Of a DNA stretch of 64,000 nt, positions 22,469-25,470 are shown piece after piece; position 1 is the first letter of the stretch; the number at the start of each line of letters is the position of its first letter. The stretch is from NCBI GenBank assembly GCA_036557285.1, contig DATBHW010000007.1:81657-145656 (forward strand), in the 5' to 3' direction. The notes beneath the pieces were generated by a model. That model saw nothing but the letters and a program-made list of their open reading frames with translations. It did not search any database and was not told where the DNA came from. Origin of the DNA: Ktedonobacterales bacterium. GTDB taxonomy: Bacteria > Chloroflexota > Ktedonobacteria > Ktedonobacterales > DATBGS01. Position numbers and translations under genes: made by a program.

Positions 22469-22696
22469 GAGCTAGTCTTCCTACCACGCTTGAATAAGAG
22501 GTTGCCAACGCCTGACGCCTCGCAGAAACGTTACCGCGATTGTAGCATTGCTTCTTGCCCAAGCGCAAGCAAACGCAAGCAACCCGCCAAACGGGGATGC
22601 TATAATAGCATCCATATTCTAGACGTTGGATAGGAGACAACAGATAGCTTCCATTTTCAGGAACAAAGATGTTCAAACGTGTACTAGCTACCTATG
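22469..22696. other. Intergenic region upstream of the membrane-protein operon, with a 19-bp palindrome at 22595-22613
   Basis: The centre is a perfect palindrome of two 9-bp arms (GGATGCTAT and ATAGCATCC) around one base. It contains TGCTATAAT on the plus strand and TATTAT on the minus strand, so a -10-like element lies within a dyad. This is compatible with a repressor-controlled promoter for the minus-strand glycosyltransferase genes, but no convincing -35 was found at 17 bp on either strand. Two CGCAAGCAA direct repeats lie at 22564-22582. The left boundary of the adjacent TnpB element probably falls near 22680. Confidence 0.4.
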
Positions 22697-22885
22697 TTAT
22701 TGCTCTGATTTCTGGGCAGGAGGGGGGTGTTGCTGATGAGTTTGCAACGCCTCCACCAGCAAGGCAACAGCCGTTGTGGTAATATGGCGATCAGTGGTCT
22801 GGTAGCGCCAGTAGCGCTCCAGCGCAGCATAGTGCTCCTCGGTGAGATAAAAGCAGAGTTCTCGATAGCCTGGTTTCTTGCGCAT
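22697..22885 (-). CDS. Small putative ribbon-helix-helix protein, divergent from tnpB
   Basis: A 62-residue protein starting MRKKPGYRELCFYLTEEHY. A short beta-like strand (RELCFYL) followed by two helices (TEEHYAALERYW and TTTAVALLVEAL) is compatible with a ribbon-helix-helix DNA-binding fold, though I cannot confirm it. ATG 22885 follows an AAGGGG ribosome site; an earlier in-frame start at 22969 would run through the promoter region. Its leader (ACGAACAAGG, then 8 nt, then ATG) mirrors that of tnpB on the opposite strand. It may repress the shared divergent promoter. Too short for a Y1 transposase and lacking its HUH motif. Confidence 0.6.
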   Translation of the reverse strand: MRKKPGYRELCFYLTEEHYAALERYWRYQTTDRHITTTAVALLVEALQTHQQHPPPAQKSEQ

Positions 22886-22923
22886 TGCGCACCCCTTGTT
22901 CGTGTATCCTGGACGGTACGGAC

Positions 22924-22951
22924 ATTCTATCACATGCAGGCTTGCCAGCAA
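22924..22951 (-). promoter_or_regulatory. Promoter of the small divergent gene
   Basis: Reading the minus strand, TTGCTG (22951-22946), 16 bp, then TAGAAT (22929-22924), giving a start near 22917 and a leader of about 30 nt. Its -35 overlaps the -35 of the tnpB promoter. Confidence 0.5.
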
Positions 22952-22970
22952 GGGCAATGGATGGTACAAT
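22942..22970 (+). promoter_or_regulatory. Promoter of tnpB
   Basis: TTGCCA at 22942-22947, a 17-bp spacer and TACAAT at 22965-22970, close to the housekeeping sigma consensus. The expected start near 22977 leaves a leader of about 32 nt to ATG 23009. Confidence 0.6.
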
Positions 22971-23008
22971 GTTCAGGTAGAACGTACAGAACGAACAAGG
23001 AACCGGAC

Positions 23009-24166
23009 ATGCTACTAGCGAAGAAAATCCGACTTCATGTAAGTGAGTCAGACGCTGCGACCCTAGAGGTCATGCAGGGCAAATGTCGCGGCCTCTACAA
23101 CTGGCTGGTCATGCGGCTGCGGGATGGGGAACGCTGGCATTTTGCCGAAGAGAAAGCACGGCTCATTGAATGCCGGGCCTACGACCCCGAACTCAACGAC
23201 GTATATGGCAAGTTGCTAGCTGAAGTGTATTTCCGGCTGGATAAGGCGATGCACGCCTTCTTTCGCCGCGTCAAGAACGGTGAGACGCCCGGCTTTCCCA
23301 GAGTGCGGCCCCGGCATGCCTTCTTCACCCTCTGCTATCCGGCCATGTACATCAAGGTAGAGGGCCATACGGTCCTCTTGCCAACGGGTGGAAGGAACGA
23401 GAAAACCAAGCGCTTCCCCACCATCCGGGCTAAACTCACCGAAGAGGCGCCTGCTGGTTACAAAGAGGTGGCAATCAGCCGAGATACCAGAGGATACTAC
23501 TACGCTTCCTTTGTCTATCCGGTGCAGGAAGCCACACCCCAAGCGGGGCAAGTGGTGGCCTTTGATTTGGGCATCAAGACGCTGGCAACGGGCGTGAACG
23601 AGCAGGGGCGGTTCTATCATATCGGCGGATGTACGGGCTATCACTGGTACAACAAGCAGTTAGATAAGCTTCGCTCCAAGCGAGACTGCTGCAAAAAGAA
23701 ATCGCGGCGCTATCTCCATCTCTCGCAGGTGTACCAGCGCGTTTCGGAAAAGAAGCGCAACAAACAACGTGACTCTCTGCACAAAGCCTCCCATCTCATC
23801 GCTCACCGGCTGGTTGAGAGAACTGTGGTGATTGGTGAGCTTTCCCAGCGGCAGATGGTTATGAAGGAACATGAAAAGCACCAAAAGGCCAGGCATCGGG
23901 CGGTGTTCAATGATTGGGGGCTGTATGGCTTTGTGCATATGCTGGAATACAAGTGTCAGTTGACTGGGAAAGCATTGGTTCAGATAGATGAACGCGATAC
24001 CAGCAAGACGTGCAGCGGCTGTGGACACCAGCAGGACATGCCGCTCTACAAACGGACGTATCGCTGTGAGACCTGTGGGCTGGTCATGGACAGAGACGAC
24101 AACTCTGCTGTGAACATTCTCCAGCGGTCTCTTGCCCGGCCAGGGCCACACACTCACCAGGCGTGA
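23009..24166 (+). CDS. tnpB: TnpB RNA-guided nuclease (IS605 OrfB family)
   Basis: A 385-residue TnpB, the compact ancestor-type relative of Cas12 that cuts DNA next to a transposon motif using a right-end-derived RNA. All three RuvC catalytic residues are present: Asp186 in VVAFDLGIK, Glu277 in VVIGELS and Asp363 in MDRDDNSAVNIL. The zinc ribbon CSGCGH ... CETCG between the last two is intact. ATG 23009 is preceded by AAGG 10 nt upstream; the frame is open further left into the divergent gene, which is a shadow. The nuclease therefore looks active rather than degenerate. No transposase accompanies it. Confidence 0.93.
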   Translation: MLLAKKIRLHVSESDAATLEVMQGKCRGLYNWLVMRLRDGERWHFAEEKARLIECRAYDPELNDVYGKLLAEVYFRLDKAMHAFFRRVKNGETPGFPRVRPRHAFFTLCYPAMYIKVEGHTVLLPTGGRNEKTKRFPTIRAKLTEEAPAGYKEVAISRDTRGYYYASFVYPVQEATPQAGQVVAFDLGIKTLATGVNEQGRFYHIGGCTGYHWYNKQLDKLRSKRDCCKKKSRRYLHLSQVYQRVSEKKRNKQRDSLHKASHLIAHRLVERTVVIGELSQRQMVMKEHEKHQKARHRAVFNDWGLYGFVHMLEYKCQLTGKALVQIDERDTSKTCSGCGHQQDMPLYKRTYRCETCGLVMDRDDNSAVNILQRSLARPGPHTHQA

Positions 24167-24242
24167 GTGCGGTGTGCTGCGGGCGACTGGGGAGGCGTAG
24201 CGGTCACGGGGGCCGCCTGAGCCAGTCAAGCGCAGCAATCAA
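24151..24242 (+). ncRNA. Candidate omegaRNA scaffold at the tnpB right end
   Basis: CACTCAC (24151-24157) and GTGAGTG (24163-24169) form a 7-bp hairpin spanning the tnpB stop codon. Downstream, GACTGG (24185-24190) pairs with CCAGTC (24222-24227), enclosing AGGCG/CGCCT. Known TnpB guide RNAs cover the end of tnpB plus the right end, with the guide read from flanking DNA. If the end is TCAA at 24242, the guide would start at 24243, in the DUF711 5' region. The RNA itself is inferred from position and structure. Confidence 0.5.
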
Positions 24243-24282
24243 TACGTTTACATATGTTTTGAAAGGCAGCAAGAAGATTCAG

Positions 24283-25470
24283 GTGCGCGTGCGAACCATT
24301 ACGCTTGGGGTAGGCGCTCCTCACCCGCTTGGCACAGAGGTTTTTGATCTGATTGACCCGGTCCTGAGCATGGCGCAGGCCGAGTTCGAGCGCGCGGGCT
24401 ATGAGGTGCAAAGCGCCCGCATCGCGCTGCGTCCTGTTTTTGTTGACCTGGCTGAATGGTCGGCCCGCGAACTGCTGGAGTACTGCGGCTATCTTCAGCA
24501 GATGTGCGTGGCGCGCGAGATTTACTATTGCTCCATCGGCCATATTCCCGCCAATGCCCCGGATGCAGACCTGCGGCGCATCAGCTTGCTGACGGATGTG
24601 CTGACGATGAATCCTACCCTGAGCGCCAGCGTCCAGATAGCCTCCACTGCCGACGGCTTGCGCCCCGATGCCGCGCTGCCAGCGGCGCGCGTGATCTGCG
24701 ATCTGGCGCGGCAGACCGACGAGGGTCTGGGCAATCTCTTTTTCTCGGTTGCCGCGAATTGCCCGCCCCAGACGCCATTTTTCCCCGTCGCTTATCATGA
24801 CAGTCCCGAATGGGGCTTTTCTATTGGCCTGCAATCGGCAGGGTTGGTAGGCGATACCTTGCGAACAGCGGCGCAAGAGTGCGGGTCTGGCTTGTTGGCC
24901 TTGCGCGATGGAGCGGCCACCGCGCGCCTGATCGCGGTGCTGGAAGAGATGGGGCGTCCCATTGCCGACCTCTGCGATGGCTGGCGCGAGCATGACATCG
25001 CTTACTATGGCCTGGACCTTTCCCCCGCGCCCTATGGCGAAGAGAGCATCGGCGACGCGCTCGAACAGGGGGGATTGGGCTATTTCGGCGAGCCAGGCAC
25101 GACAACTGTTGCCGCCGCCATCACTGCTGCGCTCAAGGGGACCAGTCTGCGCACCTGCGGCTATTGTGGGCTGATGCTTCCTCCACTCGCCGACGCTGTG
25201 ATCAGCGAGCGGCTGGCCGAAGGACGGCTCACGCTGGATTCGCTGCTGTTGTATTCTGCCGTCTGCGGCAGCGGGCTGGATAGCATCCCCATTCCGGGCG
25301 ATACCGCGCCGGAACGCATCGCCCATGTGCTGCTCGACCTGGGGGCGCTCGCGGTACGCCTGCGCAAACCGCTCTCGGCCAGGCTCTTGCCGATTCTGGG
25401 CAAACAGGCCGGGGAGATGACCACCTTCTCCTCGCCCTATCTGGTCAACGCGCCCATCCTGCGGGTATGA
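24283..25470 (+). CDS. DUF711 / UPF0210 family protein
   Basis: A 395-residue protein of the DUF711 family, whose function is not established. It opens with VRTITLGVGAPHPLG, as the family does, and later shows SVQIASTADGL, LFFSVAANCPPQTPFFPVAY and the C-terminal GYCGLMLPPL and CGSGLDSIPIPGD segments. I chose GTG 24283, preceded by AAGAAG, because the conserved region begins there; the frame is open upstream into the TnpB element. The insertion ends only about 40 bp before it, so its native promoter may have been displaced. It is followed 15 bp later by the SIS-domain gene, suggesting a two-gene unit. Confidence 0.85.
   Translation: MRVRTITLGVGAPHPLGTEVFDLIDPVLSMAQAEFERAGYEVQSARIALRPVFVDLAEWSARELLEYCGYLQQMCVAREIYYCSIGHIPANAPDADLRRISLLTDVLTMNPTLSASVQIASTADGLRPDAALPAARVICDLARQTDEGLGNLFFSVAANCPPQTPFFPVAYHDSPEWGFSIGLQSAGLVGDTLRTAAQECGSGLLALRDGAATARLIAVLEEMGRPIADLCDGWREHDIAYYGLDLSPAPYGEESIGDALEQGGLGYFGEPGTTTVAAAITAALKGTSLRTCGYCGLMLPPLADAVISERLAEGRLTLDSLLLYSAVCGSGLDSIPIPGDTAPERIAHVLLDLGALAVRLRKPLSARLLPILGKQAGEMTTFSSPYLVNAPILRV

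What the first reader, a model, noticed from the sequence alone, without database searches (positions are those of the whole stretch)
22690..24242. Catalytically intact TnpB without transposase, paired with a small divergent protein under a mirror-symmetric promoter
TnpB keeps D186, E277 and D363. The divergent 62-residue protein has a possible ribbon-helix-helix fold. Both genes have the same ACGAACAAGG leader 8 nt before ATG, overlapping -35 boxes and a short central palindrome. This looks like an autoregulated two-gene module, rather than a plain IS1341-type insertion.
Basis: partly seen in the sequence, partly recalled or inferred. Interest (0 to 1): 0.6.

Follow-up and report, generated by a model that had tools for sequence, protein, structure and literature searches.

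The report
TnpB nuclease paired with small protein
A transposon-derived, RNA-guided DNA-cutting gene (TnpB) has lost its transposase and sits in front of a host gene's start codon; beside it is a small gene that may restrain it, and related bacteria repeatedly carry a small DNA-binding-type protein in the same operon as TnpB, which suggests a self-regulating nuclease module.

Summary
The window holds a 1,633-bp IS607-clade TnpB unit (22637-24269), not an IS1341-type one. An 80%-identical TnpB in the same genome still has its serine-recombinase TnpA. D186, E277, D363 and the guide-RNA fold are kept. The unit sits at the AG of the AGGAG Shine-Dalgarno of a DUF711 gene. Most of 64 relatives do likewise; empty sites in sister genomes prove the ends.

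The divergent 62-aa frame has no detectable homologue in any collection searched, and its ribbon-helix-helix (RHH) fold is not confirmed. The mirrored promoter is above chance.

The general idea gains unexpected support. Another copy of the same TnpB clade carries an RHH-like 63-aa gene in the same slot, in operon with TnpB. Its family has 25 strong hits, 23 at a TnpB locus, 20 of them directly at the TnpB start. They span about 8 TnpB lineages, are under purifying selection, and over half have a palindrome ending at the start codon. I found no report linking RHH proteins to TnpB. Most likely these proteins are TnpB autorepressors; for the window's own protein this is inference.

The parts
22632..22636 (+). 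AGGAG: host Shine-Dalgarno of the DUF711 gene, left flank of the unit; expected TAM of this TnpB type
   Evidence: Left flanks of relatives: GGAG at the boundary in 30 of 33; empty sites in sister genomes. AGGAG is the measured TAM of 18 of 22 strains tested with IS607 TnpB (PMC11061315).
22637..22696 (+). Left end (ACAACAGATAGCTT...), with a TTCAAACGTG motif that is an inverted match of right-end motifs
   Evidence: Same spacing from GGAG to ATAGCT (7 nt) in window, L005 and L036.
22697..22885 (-). 62-aa divergent ORF (P0001), possible small DNA-binding protein
   Evidence: no homologues; best coding score of six frames; AlphaFold helices 16-28 and 33-52 at low confidence.
22894..22903 (-). 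ACGAACAAGG leader repeat of the small gene (holds its Shine-Dalgarno AAGG)
   Evidence: Sequence; inverted repeat P = 0.008.
22924..22929 (-). TAGAAT, likely -10 of the small gene; its -35 (TTGCTG, 22946-22951) is weak
   Evidence: Sequence; not found by the consensus scan.
22941..22952 (.). Palindrome CTTGCCAGCAAG between the two promoters, possible operator
   Evidence: overlaps the tnpB -35 TTGCCA.
22942..22970 (+). tnpB promoter TTGCCA-17-TACAAT with TG extension
   Evidence: 10 of 12 consensus matches.
22991..23000 (+). ACGAACAAGG leader repeat of tnpB
   Evidence: Sequence.
23009..24166 (+). tnpB, 385 aa, RNA-guided nuclease, D186 E277 D363 kept
   Evidence: NCBIfam guided_TnpB 2e-52; OrfB_IS605 and Cas12f1-like_TNB; alignment to ISDra2 TnpB.
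24128..24269 (+). Guide-RNA scaffold (right end), overlapping the tnpB 3' end and ending GAAAGGCAG
   Evidence: Consensus fold of 20 relatives: 39 pairs, 21 with changes on both sides.
24270..24289 (+). Guide-equivalent 20 nt: 5' region of the DUF711 gene (GTG at 24283)
   Evidence: First bases right of the right end. Searching GGAG plus the first 16 guide bases in the genome gave only this site and one 3-mismatch site.
24283..25470 (+). DUF711 gene whose Shine-Dalgarno was split from its start by the insertion
   Evidence: PF05167 7.2e-79.

Best explanation
The feature is a TnpA-less IS607-clade element. Shown by sequence comparison: it inserted at the AG of the AGGAG Shine-Dalgarno of a DUF711 gene, keeps an intact TnpB and a structured right-end guide RNA, and its guide would match the gene's start region. 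From established knowledge of TnpB: the nuclease would then cut the AGGAG-flanked empty site and hold the insertion in place (homing/retention). Inferred: with TnpA gone, tnpB acquired its own promoter, and the slot between left end and tnpB was taken by a small gene whose product binds the shared promoter region and represses tnpB and itself, limiting a costly nuclease. In relatives the same slot holds an RHH-like protein in operon with tnpB, often with a palindromic operator-like site; the window's 62-aa protein is, at best, a non-homologous or very diverged analogue working from a divergent promoter.
For: IS607 origin: 80%-identical TnpB with an overlapping MerR-HTH + Resolvase TnpA in the same genome. 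Ends and target: 64 unique sites, 67% with a start codon within 15 nt against 13% of control AG positions; empty sites up to 98% identical. Guide RNA covariation. RHH-TnpB module: query from L096 searched genome-wide without reference to TnpB; 25 strong hits, 20 directly at a TnpB start, 2 with an intron-split TnpB, 1 with a 657-nt gap; about 8 TnpB lineages at about 40% identity or less to each other; omega 0.04-0.20; inverted repeat at the ATG in 12 of 21, mean score 4.3 against null 0.70, maximum of 200 null means 2.05. Window: mirror-like promoter.
Against: The window's small protein has no homologue and no similarity to the RHH profile. Its fold is unconfirmed. It is divergent, whereas the relatives' RHH genes are co-directional with their TnpB. 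No palindrome sits at its ATG. A chance ORF of this length is not rare there (P = 0.21). No expression or binding data exist.
Confidence: 0.5

Rival explanations
1. The 62-aa frame is a chance ORF. The unit is simply a solo TnpB derivative of an IS607 element with its own promoter, mobilised in trans, and the mirrored motifs are partly forced by the two Shine-Dalgarno sequences.
For: No homologue in any collection; ORF length P = 0.21; many relatives are solo TnpB units with a leader of about 205 nt and no small gene, present at many sites; symmetry between -10 and Shine-Dalgarno is only P = 0.057.
Against: The whole-arm symmetry beats all 3000 shuffles; the frame is the best coding frame of six; the leader (372 nt) is longer than in the roughly 205-nt solo units; an RHH gene fills the same slot in relatives.
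Confidence: 0.3
2. The small protein is not a repressor but an antitoxin-like partner or cofactor that binds TnpB itself, making the pair a toxin-antitoxin-like addiction module.
For: In relatives the order (small RHH gene first, overlapping the nuclease gene) is the classic toxin-antitoxin layout, and weak Pfam hits are to RHH antitoxins (ParD, Antitox_RHH).
Against: No evidence that TnpB is toxic on its own or that the proteins touch; the operator-like palindromes are explained by autoregulation alone.
Confidence: 0.1
3. The small ORF is unrelated cargo or a decayed fragment of a host or mobile gene captured when TnpA was lost.
For: Orphan; unrelated longer genes also sit directly before TnpB in other copies of this clade (L062, L063, L085, L090, L093, L095).
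Against: The shared, mirrored leaders with tnpB suggest joint regulation.
Confidence: 0.1

Closest known systems
IS607-family elements with RAGATH-18 reRNA-guided TnpB (ISFba1 type, PMC11061315)
   Same: TnpB of about 385-390 aa with RuvC triad, right-end guide RNA, AGGAG at the left flank (their measured TAM is AGGAG in 18 of 22 strains); TnpA overlapping TnpB in the sister copy.
   Different: No TnpA in the window copy; a small divergent gene in its place; no Rfam match of the right-end RNA at E up to 1; in this clade insertions are placed in Shine-Dalgarno sites of host genes, which that paper does not mention (no hit for Shine or start codon).
IS1341-type / solo TnpB units (IS200/IS605)
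   Same: TnpB without a transposase, probably moved in trans.
   Different: Close relatives carry a serine recombinase, not the Y1 transposase, and the crossover dinucleotide is AG.
CvkR, MerR-type repressor of V-K CRISPR transposons (PMC9938897, abstract only read)
   Same: A regulator encoded within a mobile element that controls a TnpB-derived RNA-guided system.
   Different: MerR fold and CRISPR-transposon context; here RHH-like or unknown fold and a lone TnpB.
RHH antitoxin operons (ParD/CopG class; own knowledge)
   Same: Small RHH gene first, overlapping the downstream gene, palindrome in the promoter (relatives, not the window).
   Different: The partner is an RNA-guided nuclease; toxicity and direct binding unknown.

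Membership tests
IS607-family mobile element | Serine-recombinase TnpA with N-terminal MerR-type HTH | tested here: not met
   Absent from the window copy (no TnpA match to the locus); present in the 80%-identical copy L005 (PF00239 4.7e-23, PF00376 3.1e-9). The window unit is a TnpA-less derivative, not a full member.
IS607-family mobile element | Insertion at a dinucleotide without target duplication | tested here: met
   For relatives: empty sites match the joined flanks sharing only AG. For the window copy inferred from aligned ends.
Guided TnpB nuclease | Family profile, RuvC D-E-D and zinc ribbon | tested here: met
   guided_TnpB 178.8 bits, cutoff 100; D186, E277, D363.
Guided TnpB nuclease | Structured right-end RNA ending at the element border | tested here: met
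   21 of 39 pairs with compensatory changes over 20 relatives.
Guided TnpB nuclease | RNA-guided cleavage next to a TAM | not testable with these tools
   Only the AGGAG flank supports it.
RAGATH-18 guide RNA (Rfam) | Rfam covariance match | tested here: inconclusive
   No match to any family at E up to 1 in 22500-24500; whether the library holds this family was not checked.
TldR (domesticated TnpB repressors) | Broken RuvC active site | tested here: not met
   Triad intact.
Ribbon-helix-helix proteins (window 62-aa protein) | Sequence or fold match to RHH | tested here: inconclusive
   No RHH Pfam, PDB or profile match; low-confidence model without a recognised RHH fold.
Ribbon-helix-helix proteins (relatives' family A1) | Sequence match to RHH | tested here: inconclusive
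   Members score weakly against several RHH-type Pfam models (best Antitox_RHH 3.4e-4; RHH_10 in 4 of 16); conserved strand-helix-helix pattern by eye.

The most novel reading that the evidence does not exclude
In this bacterial order, TnpB nucleases of many lineages carry, in place of a transposase, a small RHH-type autorepressor, giving a self-regulated (perhaps toxin-antitoxin-like) RNA-guided nuclease module, in the window's clade aimed at gene start sites; the window's divergent 62-aa protein is a separate, non-homologous invention of the same arrangement.
Probability: 0.35. Interest if true: 0.75.

Novelty: new variant of a known kind. Interest (0 to 1): 0.6.

Why it matters
How TnpB expression is kept in check after the transposase is lost is, as far as I know, open. 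A recurrent small-gene partner with operator-like palindromes makes it testable: the proteins are tiny and the predicted sites exact. The Shine-Dalgarno insertion habit also gives a simple reason for the AGGAG TAM of IS607 TnpBs: the target motif is the commonest ribosome-binding sequence, and the element's right end (GAAAGGCAG, part of the guide-RNA stem) offers a possible replacement ribosome-binding site.

Tried and rejected
P0001 homologue searches: own genome, order (47 genomes), phylum (400), GTDB contigs, viral contigs, phages, plasmids, Pfam, NCBIfam, PHROGs, PDB: nothing. Weak hits L002, L003, L041 and L070 were looked at and judged chance (L041 lies in a protein kinase, L070 is antisense to another frame). 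L071 and L072 (long open frames, E about 0.04) were not inspected. P0001 as a TnpA remnant: no resemblance seen by eye. P0001 as a member of the RHH family A1: profile comparison negative. PDB fold search of the low-confidence model: nothing useful. TldR-like domestication: rejected, active site intact. IS200/IS605 (IS1341) origin: rejected because the sister copy carries a serine recombinase. Other targets of the guide in the genome: none convincing. GTDB scan with the TnpB protein: nothing confirmed, the scan needs exact peptide matches, so the wider taxonomic spread is unmeasured. Viral scan with the RHH alignment could not be run.

Full report
What is there. The window holds a 385-aa TnpB (23009-24166, +) and a divergent 62-aa frame (22697-22885, -) as described. 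TnpB is a guided_TnpB member (178.8 bits against a cutoff of 100). D186 and D363 align with the RuvC acids of ISDra2 TnpB, E277 lies in the conserved E motif (one-residue shift in the pairwise alignment), and the zinc ribbon is intact. The genome carries about 31 TnpB matches.

What kind of element. The closest copy in the genome (L005, 80% identity) has, overlapping the TnpB start, a MerR-HTH plus Resolvase protein, i.e. an IS607-type TnpA. About 80 further TnpB matches in the same order (66-74% identity for most full-length copies) include TnpA-bearing and TnpA-less copies. The window copy is therefore a TnpA-less IS607-clade unit, not an IS1341-type one.

Ends and target. Aligning left and right ends of the window, L005 and the TnpB-free L036 puts the unit at 22637-24269. 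Among relatives with a recognisable left end, 30 of 33 have GGAG as the flanking host bases (for TnpA-bearing copies the boundary was allowed to float by one base). Of 64 unique insertion sites, 43 (67%) have an ATG/GTG of an open frame of 60 codons or more within 15 nt right of the right end, against 13% of control AG positions and 15% of control GGAG positions in the flanks. Joined flanks of nine elements were searched in sister genomes: empty sites were found at up to 98% identity over 260 nt, with the AAGGAG-spacer-ATG arrangement intact. So the elements insert at the AG of host Shine-Dalgarno sequences. The published TAM of IS607/RAGATH-18 TnpBs is AGGAG in 18 of 22 strains (PMC11061315), which fits; that paper does not mention Shine-Dalgarno or start codons. 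In the window the target is a DUF711 gene (PF05167, 7.2e-79), with GTG at 24283.

Guide RNA. The right end (24128-24269) folds into a conserved structure: 39 pairs over 20 relatives, 21 with changes on both sides. Six pairs are broken in the window copy in that alignment; by eye this is mostly register, since GACUGG and CCAGUC can pair there. The terminal AAGG, which is also a ribosome-binding-like sequence for the host gene, pairs with the CUU(U/G) start of the scaffold in the consensus. No Rfam family matches.

The small frame. It has no relative in its own genome, 47 genomes of the order, 400 of the phylum, GTDB contigs, viral contigs, plasmids, phages, Pfam, NCBIfam, PHROGs or PDB. The scans of GTDB and viral contigs need exact 8-residue matches and reach close relatives only. 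The single-sequence model (pLDDT 67) shows helices at 7-11, 16-28 and 33-52, compatible with but not proof of RHH; fold search gave nothing. Coding statistics mildly favour it (best of six frames); its length alone is not unusual (P = 0.21). The promoter region is mirror-like: inverted ACGAACAAGG, P = 0.008; arm alignment 48 against a mean of 21, none of 3000 shuffles; between -10 and Shine-Dalgarno only P = 0.057. The tnpB promoter is good (10/12), the small gene's -35 weak.

The unexpected support. In L096 (G033), a TnpA-less copy of the same clade, the slot between left end and TnpB holds a 63-aa RHH-like gene on the same strand, overlapping the TnpB start by 29 nt. A genome-wide search with that protein, blind to TnpB, hit 15 of 47 genomes of the order. 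With the profile A1 there are 25 strong hits in 400 genomes of the phylum, 24 of them in the order. Twenty lie on the same strand directly at a TnpB start (overlaps of about 5-66 nt or gaps under 20 nt; the four L159/L163/L165/L167 copies are judged by similarity to the L153 TnpB, as the truncated L163 frame gave no family hit), two precede a TnpB start split by a group II intron (seen in L162; L151 by analogy), one is 657 nt away (L146), and L158 is at a contig end and cannot be judged; L183 has no TnpB. L164 has none either, so the count of 23 of 25 treats L158 and L183 as the non-TnpB pair only if L164 (whose frame holds a stop) is set aside; counted strictly, 22-23 of 25 or 26 loci are at a TnpB. 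The TnpBs fall in about eight lineages at about 40% identity or less to each other, and one pair (L147/L029) is in the window's own genome. The RHH genes are under purifying selection (omega 0.04-0.20 where dS is measurable). Twelve of 21 distinct genes have an inverted repeat across the -10 region ending at the ATG (e.g. catgtaggcattTTGCTGTaatgcctacatg), mean score 4.3 against a null mean of 0.70 and a maximum null mean of 2.05. This is what an autorepressor operon would look like. Members score weakly against RHH-type Pfam models. Papers held show no RHH/CopG-TnpB association; the library is incomplete.

Link to the window. The window's protein is not recognisably a member of that family and its gene is divergent. 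What is shared is place, size, loss of TnpA and a promoter with symmetric sequence. I therefore hold the regulator reading for the window at about even odds, and for the relatives' RHH genes at higher odds.

Verdict. Observation mostly right; interpretation partly right; the stated refutation criterion is met for the specific frame but the module idea is supported elsewhere in the same clade. New variant of a known kind.

Noticed in passing
window 22632-22636 and 24270-24285; L042-L112: This TnpB clade inserts at the AG of host Shine-Dalgarno GGAG, in sense, just before start codons; the right end GAAAGGCAG could act as a replacement ribosome-binding site and is also a guide-RNA stem.
   Followed up: yes
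L036 about 1288-1642 (G000:C47, near 61000): A TnpB-free miniature relative with matching left end and right-end RNA, placed a few nt before the ATG of a solute-binding protein gene: apparently a guide-RNA-only mobile unit.
   Followed up: partly
L145, L147-L168: Family of 51-64 aa RHH-like genes overlapping or abutting the start of TnpB in about eight TnpB lineages, many with palindromes at their ATG.
   Followed up: yes
L062, L090, L093, L095 (470-485 aa ORFs) and L063, L085, L088, L089 (about 350-375 aa ORFs): Other unrelated sense genes end just before TnpB of this clade; one of the first group has no Pfam hit, one of the second looks coiled-coil with a helix-turn-helix-like C-terminus by eye.
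   Followed up: partly
L151, L162 (G032): RHH gene followed by a TnpB start interrupted by what looks like a group II intron reverse-transcriptase region.
   Followed up: no
L159, L163, L165, L167 (G036): Four near-identical copies of an RHH-TnpB unit at different sites, with broken TnpB frames: recent mobility.
   Followed up: no
solo relatives such as L068, L061 (about 100-140 nt before TnpB): TnpA-less relatives without a small gene carry a strong promoter (GTTGACA...TATGAT) with TATCATGGTATGATA-like symmetry across the -10, another operator-like palindrome.
   Followed up: no
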